Below, piece after piece: positions 56,439 through 64,000 of a DNA stretch of 64,000 nucleotides. A model generated the notes under the pieces. It saw only the letters and a list, made by a program, of their open reading frames with translations. It was not told the DNA's origin and did not search any database. Origin of the DNA: Nitrosarchaeum sp. Lineage in GTDB: Archaea; Thermoproteota; Nitrososphaeria; Nitrososphaerales; Nitrosopumilaceae. Position 1 is the first letter of the stretch. Each line of letters opens with the position of its first letter. The position numbers were made by a program, and so were the translations under genes. The DNA lies in NCBI GenBank assembly GCA_021414365.1, contig JAIOOR010000019.1:1-64000 (forward strand), in the 5' to 3' direction.

Positions 56439-58118
56439 CTGTCTCTTTTAGAAAAATTTCCAGAACAATTTTCTCCCCGTGATATTCAAAAAGAGATCAT
56501 CTCTGAAATCGAAGAGAAACTAAATTCTGGTTACAAGAAAATTATTCTATGCGCTCCAACAGGTGTTGGAAAGTCACTAGTTGGTGCCACCATTGCAAGA
56601 TATTTTGATAGCTCATTTACTATAACTGCTTCAAAACATCTTCAGGATCAATACATCAAAGATATCCCATTTCTAAAACCCGTTAAAGGAAAACAAAATT
56701 TTCCCTGTCTGAAAATGATGGAGTTAGAAAAAGTAGATAATCCTAGAAGAGCCATGAGATGGGGATTAACATGTGATAAAGGACAATGTCAAGAAAGAAT
56801 CAACAAAAACGGCAAGGAGATAGTTGAAATCTGCAAATTCAAGCCCACGATAAAACAAGTAGATGACCATACTCAAGAAGCGGAATCTTGCCATTACTAT
56901 CTTCAAAAATATGATGCACTTGTTTCAAAACACTCTCTTTGGAATTATCATGCTTTTTTTCAAATAATGAAATTCAACAGAAAACTTTTTGAGGATTATC
57001 TAAATAGAAAAGTCTCGATATTTGATGAGGCTCATAAAATAGAAGACCAAATAATGCAGTTTATTGGATTTGACATATTTGGTGGTCAGGTAGAAGAATG
57101 TAACCTCAATGCCACAAAATATGATTTTACAGATTTAGATTCAATGATACAGCTAATTGATGACATAGCATATGCATATGCCAAAAAAATCAAGGATATC
57201 AAAGAGAGCAGTTCACATCAAAATGAACCTGATTATGAGTCTGTTACAAGACTAGAGAGAAGATATGACAGAGCAGCTCAAGCTAAAATCGATATACTTG
57301 CCAACAAGAATAATTTTGTAGTAAATGATCCAGTTGAGGATCTCAACGGAAATTTCAGAACAATCTCTGTAAAGCCAATCGATGTTTCATCTTTTGCTAA
57401 TTCATTTTTTACCACTGAATATCAAATATTTATGTCTGCAACAATTGATAGGTTTAGTTTTTGTGAAAATATGGGTTTGAAACAAGATGATGTTGCATTT
57501 ATTGATACACCGAAATCTCCATTTCCAATCGAACATCGAAGAATTGATCTTCTAAACATTAAGCGATTAAGCTATGGTTCAACTGAAGATGATGAGCTTG
57601 AAGTGATAAAAACGATTGATAGGATAATGGATGAGCATTCAACTGAGAGGGGACTGATATTGACCTCATCTATACCACGCTGCCAAAAAATTCTACGATA
57701 TCTATCACCAAAAAATACTCAACGAATTAGAATTTGTCATAGCTATAACAAAGATGGCAAAACACAGGATGAGATTATTACTGAACACGCTGCTGATCCT
57801 ACAGGAGTGTTGCTTTCCTCTTCATTGTGGGAAGGTGTTGATCTTAAAGATGATTTGTCTCGATTTCAAATTATTGCAAAAGTGCCATATCCAAACTATA
57901 AAGAAAAAAGAACAAAAGCAAAAATGGATAAATTTCCTTTGTGGTATACTGCTCAAACTCTAACTAAACTACTTCAAGGATTTGGACGCTCAATTAGAAG
58001 TGAGGATGATTGGGCAAGAACATATGTGCTTGATACTGCAGCCAACAACGTATTTTTCAAAGCTCAAAAAATGATTCCTCGTGCATATTATGATGTATTA
58101 GGTATAGAAAATTTGTAA
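56439..58118 (+). CDS. XPD/DinG-type superfamily 2 helicase with Fe-S cluster
   Basis: The track begins at ATG 56715, inside the protein; upstream codons are open and contain the Walker A loop (LCAPTGVGKSLVGAT), so the real start must be near 56439, where CTG is the best candidate (no ATG, GTG or TTG lies in frame before 56715). About 559 aa. Four Fe-S cysteines follow the P-loop (FPCLKMM, LTCDKGQC, EICKF, SCHYY), then DEAH (IFDEAHKIED) and motif VI (LLQGFGRSIRSEDDW). A 5'-3' DNA helicase role in repair is typical of the family. Confidence 0.85.
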   Translation: MSLLEKFPEQFSPRDIQKEIISEIEEKLNSGYKKIILCAPTGVGKSLVGATIARYFDSSFTITASKHLQDQYIKDIPFLKPVKGKQNFPCLKMMELEKVDNPRRAMRWGLTCDKGQCQERINKNGKEIVEICKFKPTIKQVDDHTQEAESCHYYLQKYDALVSKHSLWNYHAFFQIMKFNRKLFEDYLNRKVSIFDEAHKIEDQIMQFIGFDIFGGQVEECNLNATKYDFTDLDSMIQLIDDIAYAYAKKIKDIKESSSHQNEPDYESVTRLERRYDRAAQAKIDILANKNNFVVNDPVEDLNGNFRTISVKPIDVSSFANSFFTTEYQIFMSATIDRFSFCENMGLKQDDVAFIDTPKSPFPIEHRRIDLLNIKRLSYGSTEDDELEVIKTIDRIMDEHSTERGLILTSSIPRCQKILRYLSPKNTQRIRICHSYNKDGKTQDEIITEHAADPTGVLLSSSLWEGVDLKDDLSRFQIIAKVPYPNYKEKRTKAKMDKFPLWYTAQTLTKLLQGFGRSIRSEDDWARTYVLDTAANNVFFKAQKMIPRAYYDVLGIENL

Positions 58119-58252
58119 TACATTGCCACTTATACTATAATCATTTTTGAATTAATTCTAAACTCTTTTCGTGGTCAAATACTTTAATTCATAATTCTTG
58201 TAGAAAATCAACAATTCGATAATAATTTAACCACGAAAAAATAGATAAAACT

Positions 58253-58435
58253 ATGGAAGAATCTTCAATCAAGATACTATATGATAACAAAGATGCAAAA
58301 TGCAAAAATTCTGAATGTGGTCATACTATGGAATCACACCTGCATTTTAAAAACATCAAAGAAGACAGAATACCTTTGATATACTGCTCTGAATGTAGGG
58401 CACAAGGTCAAGAATGTAAACTAACAAAATTTTGA
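58253..58435 (+). CDS. Small Cys-rich zinc protein
   Basis: 60 aa. Ligands KCKNSECGHTMESHLH and IYCSECRAQGQECKL (C-x4-C-x2-H, then C-x2-C-x5-C). Probably one or two metal sites. No family recognised. The 300 bp beyond it (58436-58736) shows no gene. Confidence 0.6.
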   Translation: MEESSIKILYDNKDAKCKNSECGHTMESHLHFKNIKEDRIPLIYCSECRAQGQECKLTKF

Positions 58436-58736
58436 TGACAATCAAGAATTAAACCCCAAAAACCTTTAGATTTTAAACTCTTTTTAGATTTAGGCTCATT
58501 TTAAACAAAATTCGTGCTTGTAAGGTTTACTTTTAATCAATCTTTAGTAGACAAAAGATTACAAAATAAAATACTTGTAATACAAATTTTGACATTATTT
58601 TAGCCCTTTTGGTACCTCATTTTGTTAGTTTCCTTTTTTAATATTAGAACTGTTTTTTGTAAAAAATAATTTATATTTTTGCATGGACTTATGCTTGAAT
58701 TCCATTAAAATAATGTACTTCACACACCTCGACCTG

Positions 58737-58830
58737 TTATTTGTATAATGTTTGAATATATCGGGGAAGTTTTATCAAATCGGTTAGATACTCCACCTTA
58801 GATTCAATTCCACGGGGACTCAGCTACCAT
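58737..58830 (-). pseudogene. Frameshifted gene relic at the start of the accessory block
   Basis: From ATG 58830 (MVAES) the frame is broken within a CCCC run; removing one C restores RGIESKVEYLTDLIKLPRYIQTLYK up to a TAA at 58737. A TATA-like catatttg at 58850-58857 precedes the ATG by about 25 bp, so this was a real gene. The short conserved-looking peptide could be the N terminus of a larger decayed gene, perhaps an integrase; that identity is only a guess. Confidence 0.45.
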
Positions 58831-58890
58831 TTTGGGGACAAAAGTGGACGCAAATATGCCCATTAAAAAATTAGATGCAAATAGAAGATA

Positions 58891-59658
58891 TCAAAATGGA
58901 AATTTGTTATCTTTGACAGTTGTTCCAGAAGGCGAACCAAATATTGCCATTTGCACTACTGCTTTAAACGAATATTTACCTAGAATCACCTGAATTGGTA
59001 AAACCCACACATAGAATCCTAACAGTGAGATATCCAGATTAAAAAAAGTAGGATTTGGAATAGATGTCGGATTAAGCATTATTGGCGGAATATGTTCTTG
59101 ATAAGATTGGAGAATCATTGCAGTAAATGCATAGCCAAATGTCAAAAACACAAAACAAAAGAAGATTATATTAAATCTGTTTCCAATTTTACCATGTCTT
59201 AGTTTTTGATGAATCATAAACCCTGGAACAAAGTATAGAATGAATATTCCTACAATAGAATTTAAAACATCAATTCCAAGATCATATGAAGACTCTTTTT
59301 GAAGCTCTAACATGACAAAGATTACCAACACTGAGATTATTTCTATTGTCAGTCCTATTTTGAATTCCTTGCTTGAAAGATCATCTTTGATTTTTTGCAT
59401 TATTTTCAGTCTTACATTTATTATTTTATGCTCTGTTTTGACATATTTGGAATTTGCAAATACTTTAATTCCAAAACCAATTATTCCAAGAAGTATTATC
59501 ACATAAAGTATATTTTCAAATGATTCTTCATATGACAGAATTACATACCAAACTAGCAAAGAGATAAGCACAAATTGGAAAAAAAGTATCGGAACTATCA
59601 TAATCCAATTCAAGGCGATACTGGAATCATCATCATGAATTTCATACGGTAATGACAT
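58891..59658 (-). CDS. Polytopic membrane protein, unknown
   Basis: 255 aa with about seven membrane segments (helices near 18-45, 50-68, 102-118, 132-148, 162-182, 205-230) separated by short loops and a basic cytoplasmic loop (NVRLKIMQKIKDDL). No pump, channel or enzyme signature recognised. Last in a run of minus-strand accessory genes and separated by 269 bp from the next. Confidence 0.6.
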   Translation of the reverse strand: MSLPYEIHDDDSSIALNWIMIVPILFFQFVLISLLVWYVILSYEESFENILYVIILLGIIGFGIKVFANSKYVKTEHKIINVRLKIMQKIKDDLSSKEFKIGLTIEIISVLVIFVMLELQKESSYDLGIDVLNSIVGIFILYFVPGFMIHQKLRHGKIGNRFNIIFFCFVFLTFGYAFTAMILQSYQEHIPPIMLNPTSIPNPTFFNLDISLLGFYVWVLPIQVILGKYSFKAVVQMAIFGSPSGTTVKDNKFPF

Positions 59659-59772
59659 AACTAAATTCCAGATTTTGCTTATAATTTCCTAGCTAGAAGC
59701 TCTTTTGACTGTCATAAGGAATGATTCCAGGCTCAATTACAAAAAACCCATCAAAGGTTATGAGCCCGTCAA

Positions 59773-59790
59773 GGCTTGAACCTTTCTTGG
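59773..59790 (+). repeat. Interspersed repeat copy 1 (GGCTTGAACC)
   Basis: GGCTTGAACCTTTCTTGG. It also lies in a hairpin (aaggtt...gagcc...ggctt...aacctt). One of three 18-bp copies that occur only in this accessory block as far as I could see. Confidence 0.5.
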
Positions 59791-59927
59791 GAATATTTAT
59801 GATTCAAAAAAATATGTAAGTTAAGAGCTTTGAGAATACATTTTATGTCTAAAATTAGTTAAATTTACAAGTTTTATAGCATACTTTGAGTCAAATTCTT
59901 CAATTCCAACTTAATGTAAAAATTTGA

Positions 59928-61196
59928 TTATAATGTAAATATTCTATCAAATTGTTCTGGAAGTTTCAAATTTGAGGAATTATTTTTAATCATTCGTTCT
60001 CCAAAAAAATATTCGTTGGTATTCTCATTAAACTCTTCAGTAGTAAATAAAACTGCAGAAATTTTTGGATTTGATTTCAATTCATCTTCTGCCCAAATCA
60101 CTGCTTGCTGAAAATCTCTTGGAAACATACCTTCCATTAATTCCGAAATTCCAATGCTGACAATACCTGGAATTGAAGCATCGATTTGATGATTTGCAAT
60201 TCTTATGGCATCTATGATGGAAGTAAATCTATCTGGAAGCTTTCTAGTAGAAGATGAGAACCCATGGAATTCTGTAACGCATGATTTTCCATTTAGATTA
60301 CTTATACCACTCCTATATTGAAAGAAACTTTCTCCTTTTCTAAGTAGACCCAGATATTCTTCATTGCCAATACGTTTTCTTAATGCAGTGTCTATTAGGT
60401 CAAATAATGAATTCATTCCCACATTCAATATCTGCTCTTTTGGGATATATGGTAAATCCGTAGTAATAATGTCTGATTTGTCTTTGCAAATCAAATAAAG
60501 ATATACATCAAAATCAGGAAATTCGAATTTTCCTGCATTTCCTTCGTTAATTTTTTCAATGACTTTATTTTTTGCTTTATCAGCTAAATCATCTTCAATT
60601 TGATCAGTTCTTTTAAAATTTACAAATATGAAGAAATACTTCTGATCCAAAGTTAATTTTTTAACCACCTCATCCCAAATTTTTTGAAAATATTCATAAT
60701 TCAAATTATCTTTTTTTGTAGTAGGATCTTTTTTCTTACAATCTAACTGCACATTATCATTTATCAATAAATCAGGCGTAGGAGAAGTGTTTTCTTTAAG
60801 AAATTCTACTTTCTGGCCTTTTTTGACAAGATAACTTGCAATACGTATTTCATAGATTATTTTATCTGCTTTTTGATATCCTGAAGTGATCAACTCTTGA
60901 ATTTTTTCATCTATACCAACAACATGCTTGTTTTGAAGTAATTCAATGTCTAATCCAAGAACAATCAATTTTGCCATATTTTTAGTAATTTTATTTGTTC
61001 TAAGTTTAGAGCCTTCATCATAATCATTTTTTGCATCGTGTAAAAATCGAATAAAGGGATGAAAATCCATGTTTTTTCCAAAATTTTTTTCAAATTTTTG
61101 TTCTTCATCATTTAATTTGTCATGAGGCAAGATATTTCGAATTCTATGATATTGCCCTAAACCAGAATCGAATTTCAGATTCATGTTTTCATACAT
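59928..61196 (-). CDS. PD-(D/E)XK-like nuclease, possible defence effector
   Basis: 422 aa. The middle holds IYEIRIASYLVKKGQKVEFL, SPTPDLLINDNVQLDCKKKDP, matching the E ... PD ... (D)-x-K arrangement of restriction-like nucleases with a Lys-rich DxK. N-terminal 115 residues are helical. The C-terminal region (residues 280-422) is another alpha/beta unit with no family match. Membership of the restriction-endonuclease fold is plausible from motifs, not proved. Confidence 0.6.
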   Translation of the reverse strand: MYENMNLKFDSGLGQYHRIRNILPHDKLNDEEQKFEKNFGKNMDFHPFIRFLHDAKNDYDEGSKLRTNKITKNMAKLIVLGLDIELLQNKHVVGIDEKIQELITSGYQKADKIIYEIRIASYLVKKGQKVEFLKENTSPTPDLLINDNVQLDCKKKDPTTKKDNLNYEYFQKIWDEVVKKLTLDQKYFFIFVNFKRTDQIEDDLADKAKNKVIEKINEGNAGKFEFPDFDVYLYLICKDKSDIITTDLPYIPKEQILNVGMNSLFDLIDTALRKRIGNEEYLGLLRKGESFFQYRSGISNLNGKSCVTEFHGFSSSTRKLPDRFTSIIDAIRIANHQIDASIPGIVSIGISELMEGMFPRDFQQAVIWAEDELKSNPKISAVLFTTEEFNENTNEYFFGERMIKNNSSNLKLPEQFDRIFTL

Positions 61197-61318
61197 TTCT
61201 GGAAAGTAATAAAATGATCAAAGATTTTGAGGCTAAAATCTAATTTTAGAAATATGTTTCGAGTACTTCCTAAGAGTTTTGAAAGTATGAATTATGGCTA
61301 AAACAAATTAAATTTTCT

Positions 61319-61346
61319 GTTTTGAAAAAGATTTTGGGTGTAAAAT
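61319..61346 (+). repeat. Intergenic repeat, AGATTTTGxGTGTAxAAT type
   Basis: GTTTTGAAAAAGATTTTGGG and the following TGTAAAAT resemble the stretch at 62163-62191 (GTTTTAGAAATAGATTTTGAGTGTAGAAT), each about 25 bp before or after an accessory gene. Likely a shared promoter or terminator element of the block. Confidence 0.35.
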
Positions 61347-61350
61347 ACAA

Positions 61351-62094
61351 TCAATTTTCTTTATAATTTTTAGGGTTTAACACATATAGAAAATCTAAGG
61401 TGTTTTTCCATTTTTCAATACCGTCTACATCATCTGAGTGTTCTAATTTATCATGAGCATATTCGATCATTGTCATTTTGACATAAGACTTCCATGTTTC
61501 AAAATCATTATCCAATTCTATAGCAAATGTATTGTAAGGTTTTCCTGATTTCATCGGAACATTATATTTTACAAAAGCTCCACGAAACATGTCGGGGGAT
61601 TCACTTTGTAGTCTTGTAAGCCCCCCATAAGCACTTGGACAAGTAAATACTCCAATCCAATCTCCTTTTTCATAATACTGTGCAGCTTCATCAATAGCAG
61701 GTCCAAGTATCATGTTTGGTGATTCATAAAATTCTCCAATACTTATGCATCCTCTTAAGTAAATGTCAATAGCCATTGCACCTGCAACTAACATTTTTGC
61801 AGCAAAAGCAGTTGCCATCAATAAATCCTGAATATTTTTAGAATTTACAACAAAGATTATGGTATCTGAAAATGCAAACATTTTGTATGTTGAATTCCAT
61901 TCTTTTCCTCTGGGAACAAAATTTTCCTTGAATGTTTCAACTAATAATTCCCAATTTGCTAATACAGAATCGGCATTTTTCCCTTTCCAGGAACCTTTTG
62001 TTCCCAATGAGTCAAGTAAAAGCACAGCACCATAATTTTTCTTATATTTTTTAGATTTTGTGTTTTTCTTAGATTTTGCGTCTTTTCTAGCCAC
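61351..62094 (-). CDS. Class III nucleotidyl-cyclase-like protein
   Basis: 247 aa. After a basic N terminus the sequence LLLDSLGTKG supplies the first metal Asp, FAFSDTIIFVV the second, and YLRGCISIGEF-x8-GPAIDEAAQYYEKGDWIGVF the purine/pyrimidine-binding and transition-state region typical of the nucleotidyl cyclase/GGDEF-like superfamily, including Pycsar cyclases of phage defence. A TATA-like ttttaata lies about 30 bp upstream. The nucleotide made is unknown; activity is a prediction. Confidence 0.65.
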   Translation of the reverse strand: MARKDAKSKKNTKSKKYKKNYGAVLLLDSLGTKGSWKGKNADSVLANWELLVETFKENFVPRGKEWNSTYKMFAFSDTIIFVVNSKNIQDLLMATAFAAKMLVAGAMAIDIYLRGCISIGEFYESPNMILGPAIDEAAQYYEKGDWIGVFTCPSAYGGLTRLQSESPDMFRGAFVKYNVPMKSGKPYNTFAIELDNDFETWKSYVKMTMIEYAHDKLEHSDDVDGIEKWKNTLDFLYVLNPKNYKEN

Positions 62095-62162
62095 GATTTA
62101 GAATATGAGTTTACTAATGTATTAAAAGTTACAGATTTGTGATTTCATTCCTAAAATCCCTG

Positions 62163-62191
62163 TTTTAGAAATAGATTTTGAGTGTAGAATC
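62163..62191 (+). repeat. Intergenic repeat, second copy of AGATTTTG element
   Basis: GTTTTAGAAATAGATTTTGA plus GTGTAGAAT, aligned with 61319-61346 at about 23 of 28 positions. It abuts the second GGCTTGAACC repeat. Confidence 0.35.
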
Positions 62192-62197
62192 TTAAAG

Positions 62198-62215
62198 GGC
62201 TTGAACCATTTTTGG
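62198..62215 (+). repeat. Interspersed repeat copy 2 (GGCTTGAACC)
   Basis: GGCTTGAACCATTTTTGG, in the 218-bp gap between the cyclase-like and membrane-anchored genes. Confidence 0.5.
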
Positions 62216-62312
62216 AGATAAAATGAGATGCAAAATTTAATCTTTCAAAGGAACTAGATTTTAGTTCAAAAATTTAATTCAAATATTAGCAAGTTTGTAT
62301 CCCAAATGGTTT

Positions 62313-63023
62313 TCATTTAGAAAGTGATTCTTTTAATTTTTGGATATCCTTTTGAAGTGCAGAAAATCGTGGATCCCATAATAATAGTTCATCATTAAGA
62401 TTTACATCAAGACCGACAATGTCCCCTGGTTCATGCATACGAAATTTGACATTATGTATCCCTCCAACTTGAGCAAATTCTGATCTCCATCGCAAATAAA
62501 ATTGATCTGCAGATTTCCCAAAAGACTCTATAATTTCTTTAGCGTAAAATCTTTGTCTTTCTAGCTCTCTAGGATTATAGAATATTCCATTATCTACATT
62601 TCCCACTTTTTCTATGAATGTATATGAAATTGAGGTATATCGTTGAACTTTTAAAAAATTTTCTAATGTCATGGATCCAGGAAGATTTTTAAAATTTTGT
62701 ATTCTTTCTATTTCATTTAGAATGAGTTCTCTATAACGAAATATTTCATCATAGATAGGTTTTGAATATCTATATATTTTTCCAGTATCTGGATTAAATT
62801 CAGGATTTGATTCTAAGTGATTAAAAATACTCTTTTTGTAACTATCAATAAAAGATATGTGACTGAAAAATAAATCATCTACGTATTTTGTATTTTTTTC
62901 AAAGACTTTCTCTATTTTTGGTTTAAAGACATATTTGAATAAGAAAGCAATGGCTGTTGCAATAATTACATTTACTGTAATGCCAATGTATAGCTCAATC
63001 CATTTATCATCAAGAATATCCAT
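62313..63023 (-). CDS. Membrane-anchored protein of the accessory block
   Basis: 236 aa with one N-terminal membrane helix (IELYIGITVNVIIATAIAFLF) and a large soluble helical domain that contains Tyr/Arg-rich motifs (SISYTFIEKVG, REFLERQRFY-like RELERQRFYAKEIIESF). Topology suits a signalling or effector subunit. It lies next to the cyclase-like gene on the same strand. No family recognised. Confidence 0.6.
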   Translation of the reverse strand: MDILDDKWIELYIGITVNVIIATAIAFLFKYVFKPKIEKVFEKNTKYVDDLFFSHISFIDSYKKSIFNHLESNPEFNPDTGKIYRYSKPIYDEIFRYRELILNEIERIQNFKNLPGSMTLENFLKVQRYTSISYTFIEKVGNVDNGIFYNPRELERQRFYAKEIIESFGKSADQFYLRWRSEFAQVGGIHNVKFRMHEPGDIVGLDVNLNDELLLWDPRFSALQKDIQKLKESLSK

Positions 63024-63041
63024 ATTAATACAAATTTAATA

Positions 63042-63081
63042 AATTCTAAATACCCTTTGACAATTCTAAATACCCTTTGAC
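63042..63081. repeat. Exact 20-bp tandem duplication at the winged-helix stop
   Basis: AATTCTAAATACCCTTTGAC occurs twice head-to-tail (63042-63061, 63062-63081). It repeats the last six codons and stop of the gene ending at 63066 (ELSKGI), so it is a recent slip or duplication. Confidence 0.85.
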
Positions 63082-63551
63082 AATTCATAACCTGCATTAG
63101 TTAGTTTTGTTTCAAAACTTCCACCTAGATACAACTGGAGATATAGATATCCCTCATCTTTGAGATATTTCATATCAGATAGAATTTCTATTGGTCCAGA
63201 TAACTTCAATTCCTTAAGGATGATTTCGTGAGATACATAATGGTCAGTATCTTTTTCATAAAATCCTTTAAGAATGCTTATAATTTTATTTCTTCGATTT
63301 TGGTGTTGTAAACTATCAACCAATTCCTTTTCTTCAAGATATTTTATGCCAAAGACAGTTATTTTGTATTGGTTATTTTCCAAGCTGATTAAGAAATTAT
63401 CTGCTAAACTATTAAGAGCCATTCGTACATCATTTGGATTATTAGGCGATAATTCGTCTTCAAGTGTAGTCTTTCTAAAACCAATTACATAATTTTCAAA
63501 ATATTGATTGTATAATTTTTTGAGAATAGAATTCTCTATATCTGAAGTCAT
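63066..63551 (-). CDS. Tandem winged-helix protein
   Basis: 161 aa. Two winged-helix modules: residues 1-72 (TTLEDELSPNNPNDVRMALNSLADNFLISLENNQYKITVFGIKYLE, partly quoted) and residues 80-161 (VSHEIILKELKLSGPIEILSDMKYLKDEGYLYLQ, partly quoted). First gene of the minus-strand accessory run, so a possible local regulator. No ligand domain. Confidence 0.65.
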   Translation of the reverse strand: MTSDIENSILKKLYNQYFENYVIGFRKTTLEDELSPNNPNDVRMALNSLADNFLISLENNQYKITVFGIKYLEEKELVDSLQHQNRRNKIISILKGFYEKDTDHYVSHEIILKELKLSGPIEILSDMKYLKDEGYLYLQLYLGGSFETKLTNAGYELSKGI

Positions 63552-63598
63552 AATGATTGAAAATCAAATTATTCTTAAATATCATTCTAATCCATAGA

Positions 63599-63616
63599 GG
63601 CTTGAACCGTTTTTGG
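63599..63616 (+). repeat. Interspersed repeat copy 3 (GGCTTGAACC)
   Basis: GGCTTGAACCGTTTTTGG, 48 bp upstream of the tandem winged-helix gene. With copies at 59773 and 62198 it brackets most of the accessory block. Confidence 0.5.
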
Positions 63617-63769
63617 GTAAGAAATTATTCTGATTCCACATCACATAGGCATACCCTTCATGAGTTCTGTCAAATTGATTTGACACTCTTCATCTCCCAA
63701 TGGGCTTGATTTTGGTTTATGACCTCATTTCTTTATGAAAATTGTTTTTCTAGTTCAATATCTAAAACC

Positions 63770-64000
63770 ATGATTATGGGTAAAACCATTGAAGAAATAA
63801 AAAAACATCAATTTGGTTTATTTATAATGGGAATTCTGTTTATTGTTGCTGGAATTTTTGCAAATAATGTAATGCCTTGGGCAGACCAGATTGCTCTTAC
63901 TCAAATAGAAAGTTGTATTGCAGATATGCATTTTAGACATAATAATGAAACTCAATTTCAAGAATGTGTTTCTCCCGATCTCAAGAAAATAGAGGCTATT
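63770..64000 (+). CDS. Exported or membrane-anchored protein (3' partial)
   Basis: ATG at 63770 (or 63776, MGKTIEEIKKHQ) with an open frame to the window end, 77 codons seen. One hydrophobic helix (FGLFIMGILFIVAGIF) and then a polar region with two Cys (ESCIADM, QECVSPD) likely outside the membrane. Not in the track because no stop is seen. Unknown function. Confidence 0.55.
   Translation, partial: MIMGKTIEEIKKHQFGLFIMGILFIVAGIFANNVMPWADQIALTQIESCIADMHFRHNNETQFQECVSPDLKKIEAI

What the first reader, a model, noticed from the sequence alone, without database searches (positions are those of the whole stretch)
61351..62094. Archaeal cyclase-like protein possibly of Pycsar type
The order Asp (LLDSLG), Asp (FSDTIIF), RGxIS-x-G and GPAxxEA with a following aromatic/acidic stretch is that of Pycsar-like cyclases; an archaeal chromosomal example outside known systems would be new. 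Separate from the locus claim because the protein could act alone.
Basis: inference. Interest (0 to 1): 0.7.

Follow-up and report, generated by a model that had tools for sequence, protein, structure and literature searches.

The report
Mobile-element nucleotide-cyclase-fold protein in archaeon
An archaeal gene carried on a 17-kb mobile element encodes a protein with the fold and two metal-binding aspartates of nucleotide cyclases (enzymes that make signalling molecules), but it belongs to a diverged family of its own and is not part of the known Pycsar anti-virus system.

Summary
The ORF is real: minus strand 61351-62094, GTG start, 247 aa. It belongs to a patchily distributed family (10 of 250 genomes of its archaeal family; also Fusobacterium, Caldisericia, Bacteroidota, a plasmid, a phage). 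The AlphaFold model (pLDDT 84) has the class III cyclase fold; all 50 listed PDB matches are class III cyclases. "Pycsar type" is not supported: the family profile finds no PycC structure; the genome has no cNMP-binding (PF00027) or PycTM (PF18967) protein; no effector is linked; canonical base-recognition and transition-state residues are replaced. A positive control, a PycC+PycTM cassette in a same-family genome, uses an ordinary class III cyclase. The gene lies inside a 17.0-kb tyrosine-recombinase element with imperfect att repeats, absent from three same-genus genomes; relatives ride a casposon with mapped ends and other elements, and some are fused to Mrr_N or integrase-like domains. Best reading: mobile-element cargo, a diverged metal-dependent nucleotidyl cyclase, probably for antiviral or inter-element signalling. 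Substrate and effector unknown.

The parts
61351..62094 (-). gene of the cyclase-fold protein P0001, 247 aa, GTG start
   Evidence: relatives; model
62011..62013 (-). codon of D28 (end of strand 1), predicted metal ligand 1
   Evidence: 20/20 conserved; position in model
61864..61866 (-). codon of D77 in FSDT (strand 2-3 turn), predicted metal ligand 2
   Evidence: 20/20 conserved; position in model
61735..61755 (-). R114-G120, RGCISIG on strand 4
   Evidence: R114, G115 20/20; G120 19/20
61681..61704 (-). G131-A138, GPAIDEAA; position of the class III transition-state Asn (here D135) and, next to it, an invariant acidic residue 136
   Evidence: correspondence with DILGPAMNIAAKI of ordinary cyclases read by eye from the sequences
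61549..61551 (-). codon of K182 in the strand 6-7 hairpin, topological counterpart of the class III phosphate-binding Lys (inference)
   Evidence: K 18/20, R 2/20; hairpin 174-179/187-192
61411..61413 (-). codon of K228, invariant, last helix, role unknown
   Evidence: 20/20
62120..62127 (-). TATA-like TTTTAATA centred about 30 nt upstream of the GTG; suggests an own promoter and a leaderless transcript (inference)
   Evidence: sequence
62313..63023 (-). upstream neighbour, one N-terminal membrane helix, no relatives found in the order; not shown to be a partner
59928..61196 (-). downstream neighbour, PD-(D/E)XK-like signature (PDLLI...LDCKKK) read by eye; its relatives are not beside cyclases
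58105..64000 (.). window part of the 17.0-kb integrated element that carries the gene (contig C21 58105-75102; right end outside the window)
58105..58120 (+). left att repeat TAGAAAATTTGTAATA at the 3' end of the helicase gene 56715-58118; right copy TAGAAAATCTGTAGTA at C21 75087-75102

Best explanation
The gene encodes a stand-alone protein of a diverged family with the class III nucleotide-cyclase fold. It most likely works as a homodimer that binds divalent metal through D28 and D77 and converts a nucleoside triphosphate into a (cyclic) nucleotide signal. It is cargo of a 17-kb tyrosine-recombinase element, as its relatives are cargo of casposons and other elements, and most likely serves antiviral defence or conflict between elements. 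Shown: the gene, the family, the predicted fold, conservation of the metal residues and the mobile-element setting. Inferred: catalysis, dimer, defence role. Unknown: base specificity, product, receptor, trigger.
For: AF2 model pLDDT 83.8, pTM 0.83 with the class III order of strands and helices. All 50 listed PDB matches are class III cyclases, best E 1.5e-6, prob 1.00. D28, D77, R114 and acidic 136 conserved in 20/20. hhalign against ordinary class III cyclases of the phylum, although weak (E 0.089), pairs D28 with their first and D77 with their second metal Asp. Patchy presence: 10 of 250 genomes of the family, and no other genome of its genus. Integrated element mapped against three same-genus genomes, with att repeats and an adjoining tyrosine recombinase. 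A homologue sits inside a TIR-bounded 13-kb casposon at ef-2, another overlaps cas1 by 4 bp with PolB nearby, a third is next to MCM and PolB genes.
Against: No Pfam, NCBIfam or PADLOC cyclase model matches the protein itself, and sequence-level homology to class III enzymes is marginal. The Foldseek TM-scores are moderate (0.41-0.53 by query). The canonical base pair (Lys, Asp) is replaced by F73 and M128 and the transition-state Asn and Arg by D135 and Q139; no member has Arg at 139, so activity could be altered or lost. No receptor is known, and no conserved neighbour supports a defence role directly.
Confidence: 0.55

Rival explanations
1. It is a true but diverged Pycsar cyclase (PycC): it makes cUMP or cCMP on infection and activates an unrecognised effector, for example the membrane protein encoded upstream (62313-63023).
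For: Same fold; PycC of Anabaena (8jsz) is among the structural matches at E 9.6e-5. One family member gives a weak PADLOC PycC hit, E 0.013. A membrane-protein gene lies upstream on the same strand. A paper on Haloferax and Sulfolobus raises the possibility of further, more distant cytidylate/uridylate cyclases in archaea (PMC8646023).
Against: 36 other cyclase structures rank above the PycC structure; the profile finds no PycC at E<=10. No PF00027 or PF18967 protein in the genome. The upstream gene is 219 bp away, has no relative in 151 genomes of the order, and its model is too poor to judge. No family locus carries a recurrent partner. Specificity residues named for the PycC clades (PMC11224242) are not matched.
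Confidence: 0.07
2. It is a pseudo-cyclase: a cyclase-fold domain that binds a nucleotide or ligand and regulates transcription or DNA transactions of its mobile element without catalysis.
For: Transition-state and base residues replaced. Fusions to DNA-associated domains: Mrr_N in two members (E 8e-23 and 2e-21) and a weak integrase-like domain in two. The protein here starts with a Lys-rich tail.
Against: Both metal Asp, Arg114, the acidic 136 and Lys182 (or Arg) are kept in members only 20-30% identical, which points to chemistry under selection.
Confidence: 0.2
3. It is a housekeeping class III adenylate or guanylate cyclase of the archaeon.
For: Fold. The lineage does have class III cyclases; this genome has two over the Pfam cut-off elsewhere.
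Against: Absent from the other genomes of the genus, located in an integrated element, lacks the Lys/Asp adenine pair, and differs from the ordinary cyclases of the phylum.
Confidence: 0.05
4. It is a palm-fold polymerase-type enzyme making a dinucleotide or oligonucleotide signal (GGDEF, mCpol or Cas10-like) rather than a mononucleotide cyclase.
For: Related palm fold; mCpol enzymes of Panoptes use a comparable two-Asp site (PMC12657218).
Against: No GGDEF, GGDD or mCpol structure among the 50 listed PDB matches; the strand 6-7 hairpin after helix 5 follows the class III order.
Confidence: 0.08

Closest known systems
Class III nucleotidyl cyclases (PF00211; soluble guanylate cyclase, CyaC, Rv1900c)
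   Same: Fold and order of elements; two metal Asp; conserved basic residue and Gly on strand 4; Lys in the strand 6-7 hairpin
   Different: No PF00211 match for this protein; base-recognition Lys/Asp and transition-state Asn/Arg replaced; extra invariant acidic 136 and K228
Pycsar cyclases (PycC) with PycTM or PycTIR
   Same: Class III fold; small stand-alone protein; mobile setting; a PycC+PycTM cassette occupies a casposon in a related genome
   Different: No effector, no CNBD or PycTM in the genome, no PycC hit by profile, different specificity positions
DUF2652 and other unclassified bacterial cyclase-like proteins (PMC4886424)
   Same: Diverged class III-like proteins known from sequence only, with metal Asp kept and base residues changed
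   Different: That set keeps the transition-state Arg in mycobacteria and is bacterial; no Pfam DUF2652 match here
Cargo genes of thaumarchaeal casposons and cryptic integrated elements (PMC6563490)
   Same: Same hosts, same element classes, ef-2 as casposon target, integration at ends of protein genes
   Different: That paper's main text does not mention a cyclase (0 occurrences)

Membership tests
Class III nucleotidyl cyclase (by fold) | class III cyclase fold | tested here: met
   AF2 pLDDT 84; all 50 listed PDB matches class III cyclases
Class III nucleotidyl cyclase (by fold) | two metal-binding Asp at the end of strand 1 and in the strand 2-3 turn | tested here: met
   D28 and D77, 20/20 conserved, at those places in the model; distance not measured
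Class III nucleotidyl cyclase (by fold) | transition-state Asn and Arg on helix 4 | tested here: not met
   D135 and Q139; no Arg at 139 in any of 20
Class III nucleotidyl cyclase (by fold) | match to PF00211 over its cut-off | tested here: not met
   no match for P0001; one member at E 0.09
Class III nucleotidyl cyclase (by fold) | NTP to cNMP activity | not testable with these tools
   needs a biochemical assay
Pycsar (PycC) | sequence match to PycC models or structures | tested here: not met
   PADLOC none; no PycC chain at E<=10 with the family profile; control profile A4 finds them at 6e-16 to 2e-15
Pycsar (PycC) | adjacent effector, PycTM or CNBD-TIR | tested here: not met
   neighbours have no such match; none in the whole genome for PF00027 and PF18967
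Pycsar (PycC) | pyrimidine-specificity residues as in PycC clades (e.g. F at D1-2 with R/Q, or K/F, near D2) | tested here: not met
   L26, F73, F75, I80 here; variable or hydrophobic in the family against PMC11224242
Pycsar (PycC) | cUMP or cCMP synthesis upon infection | not testable with these tools
   needs LC-MS
Panoptes / mCpol | mCpol palm with S-2TM-beta, CARF or SAVED partner | tested here: inconclusive
   no mCpol or GGDEF among listed PDB matches; the membrane neighbour is unclassifiable; CARF/SAVED not searched genome-wide
Integrated mobile element (tyrosine recombinase type) | insertion absent in relatives, att repeats, adjoining integrase | tested here: met
   empty site in three same-genus genomes, 16-bp att 14/16, integrase PF00589 E 1.1e-5 (25.7 bits, cut-off 27.1) with R..HxxR..Y residues

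The most novel reading that the evidence does not exclude
A new family of DNA-sensing nucleotide cyclases carried by archaeal mobile elements: an N-terminal DNA-associated part (Mrr_N winged helix, integrase-like domain, or a Lys-rich tail as here) detects foreign or modified DNA and switches on a class III-like cyclase with unusual active-site chemistry. This would be a cGAS-like logic built from an unrelated enzyme.
Probability: 0.13. Interest if true: 0.85.

Novelty: new variant of a known kind. Interest (0 to 1): 0.5.

Why it matters
A paper on archaeal second messengers raises the possibility of cytidylate/uridylate cyclases more distant than the known ones (PMC8646023), and antiviral second messengers in ammonia-oxidising archaea are little explored. 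A cyclase-fold family that standard models do not see, carried by casposons and integrase elements, is a concrete small target for biochemistry. The positive control found on the way, a Pycsar cassette inside a casposon, independently suggests that such elements move nucleotide-signalling genes between archaea.

Tried and rejected
Pycsar membership: rejected. Operon with the membrane protein or the nuclease-like gene: not supported; the first has no relatives in the order, the relatives of the second are not beside cyclases, and the cyclase has its own TATA-like element. Weak Pfam hits (Ubiq-assoc, RDD1) and phmmer hits to fructose-6-phosphate aldolase: below any cut-off, taken as noise. Viral contigs: two scans, no relative. 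A tree of 20 members: mostly unresolved with long branches, so no claim on direction of transfer. A search for exact att repeats of 17 bp or more found none that fit; the true repeat is 16 bp and imperfect. Single-sequence AF2 of the upstream protein: pLDDT 60, not used for a fold search. Alignment A1 was too diverse for locus search; A2 worked.

Full report
1. The observation. The finding lies on the minus strand. Translation of 62094-61351 gives one open frame of 247 aa with a GTG start. No upstream in-frame alternative exists (only one codon separates the GTG from the preceding stop), and a TATA-like TTTTAATA is centred about 30 nt upstream of the GTG, which would give a leaderless transcript; this promoter is inference.

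2. It is a real family. Relatives were found in 12 of 201 genomes of the order (own included) with the single sequence and in 10 of 250 genomes of the family with a profile. They also occur in a Fusobacterium record, a Methylobacter plasmid and a phage, and in Caldisericia and Bacteroidota genomes. One near relative is from Candidatus Nitrosotenuis chungbukensis, so the window comes from an ammonia-oxidising archaeon of that family (inference). None of the other genomes of the genus has it.

3. Fold. AlphaFold2 on seven sequences gave pLDDT 83.8, pTM 0.83, with strands 18-30, 69-75, 78-84, 112-125, 148-151, 174-179, 187-192 and helices 41-58, 88-108, 132-140, 153-165 between them. This is the class III cyclase order. 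D28 is at the end of strand 1 and D77 in the strand 2-3 turn. All 50 listed PDB matches are class III cyclases (best E 1.5e-6, prob 1.00; TM by query 0.41-0.53); a uridylate cyclase of Pycsar, 8jsz, is rank 37. By sequence the link is very weak: Pfam and NCBIfam see nothing relevant, the profile against PDB has soluble guanylyl cyclase at E 0.37 as best, and hhalign against ordinary class III cyclases of the phylum reaches only E 0.089, though it pairs both metal Asp correctly.

4. Active site. The ordinary class III cyclases of these archaea read VDLVGS, KFVGDAVI and DILGPAMNIAAKI at the three catalytic places. Placing them by eye on LDSLGTK, FAFSDTII and MILGPAIDEAAQY gives: base-recognition Lys to F73 and Asp to M128; transition-state Asn to D135 and Arg/Lys to Q139. 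No member has Arg at 139, and position 73 is variable. The metal Asp and a Lys in the strand 6-7 hairpin (K182, counterpart of the phosphate-binding Lys by topology, inference) stay. So the enzyme probably still binds metal and triphosphate, but base and product cannot be predicted, and loss of activity is possible.

5. Pycsar tests. PADLOC finds no PycC in P0001 and one member at E 0.013. The family profile hits no PycC structure at E<=10, while the control profile of ordinary cyclases hits 8jsf, 7r65 and 6yii at 6e-16 to 2e-15. The genome has no PF00027 (12 of 14 control genomes ring) and no PF18967. Neighbours are not shared between family loci and are mostly unrelated housekeeping or element genes. 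Specificity positions published for the PycC clades (PMC11224242) are not matched. A positive control exists: genome G105 of the same family has a class III cyclase overlapping a PycTM gene by 4 bp. Its cyclase is an ordinary one (VGDS), unlike P0001. P0001 is thus not filed as Pycsar, although it could work by a similar logic.

6. Mobile-element setting. Two core genes that flank the region lie about 11-14 kb apart in same-genus genomes and 30 kb apart here. In three of those genomes the DNA left of the gene is collinear up to C21 58120 and resumes at 75087, the two blocks overlapping by 16 bp in the empty site. In the window genome the two copies are TAGAAAATTTGTAATA and TAGAAAATCTGTAGTA (14/16); the left one contains the stop codon of a helicase gene (56715-58118), and a tyrosine recombinase gene abuts the right one. 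The gene is therefore cargo of a 17.0-kb integrated element. Relatives: in G120 the gene (Mrr_N fused) lies in a 13.1-kb casposon with perfect 40-bp terminal inverted repeats and a target duplication at ef-2; in G667 it overlaps cas1 by 4 bp and PolB is near; in G049 it follows MCM and PolB genes. Thaumarchaeal casposons and ef-2 as target are described in PMC6563490, whose main text does not mention cyclases.

7. Mechanism. The best-supported account is a metal-dependent nucleotidyl cyclase of a diverged class III-like family, mobile-element cargo, probably making a nucleotide signal in defence or inter-element conflict. Fusions to Mrr_N (two members) and to a weak integrase-like domain (two members), a TPR fusion in Fusobacterium, and a Lys-rich N-terminus here suggest that the trigger may be nucleic acid; this is inference. 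Rivals are a pseudo-cyclase regulator (0.2), a palm-type oligonucleotide synthase (0.08), a diverged Pycsar cyclase (0.07) and a housekeeping cyclase (0.05).

8. Verdict. Interest 0.5.

Noticed in passing
L084 626-1848; L095 10103-14191 (G105 C1 about 890102-894190): A 4.1-kb casposon in ef-2 (179-bp terminal inverted repeats, 99.4% identical, target duplication) holds cas1, a membrane-protein gene and a Pycsar-type pair: class III cyclase overlapping a PF18967 PycTM gene by 4 bp; no PolB match.
   Followed up: partly
L091/L092 (G120 C1 about 1095045-1108149): A 13.1-kb casposon in ef-2 with perfect 40-bp terminal inverted repeats carries PolB, a Cas4-like gene, a DNA methyltransferase, cas1 and an Mrr_N-cyclase fusion of the P0001 family.
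   Followed up: yes
contig C21 58105-75102 (window from 58105): 17.0-kb tyrosine-recombinase element at the 3' end of a DinG/XPD-like helicase gene, with several unknown small membrane-protein genes and a 933-aa protein with a weak cupredoxin-like C-terminus.
   Followed up: partly
window 59928-61196 (-): Protein with a PD-(D/E)XK-like stretch; distant relatives in five other genomes of the order, none of which showed the cyclase.
   Followed up: partly
L051 5803-6544 (G505) and L048 (G680): Apparently broken copies of the P0001 family (frameshift or stops), as expected of a gene that is gained and lost.
   Followed up: no
L015 2816-4600 (Fusobacterium vincentii record NZ_CP084075.1): TPR repeats fused to a P0001-family domain; the record is filed as a 2.1-Mb plasmid, which is the size of a chromosome.
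   Followed up: no
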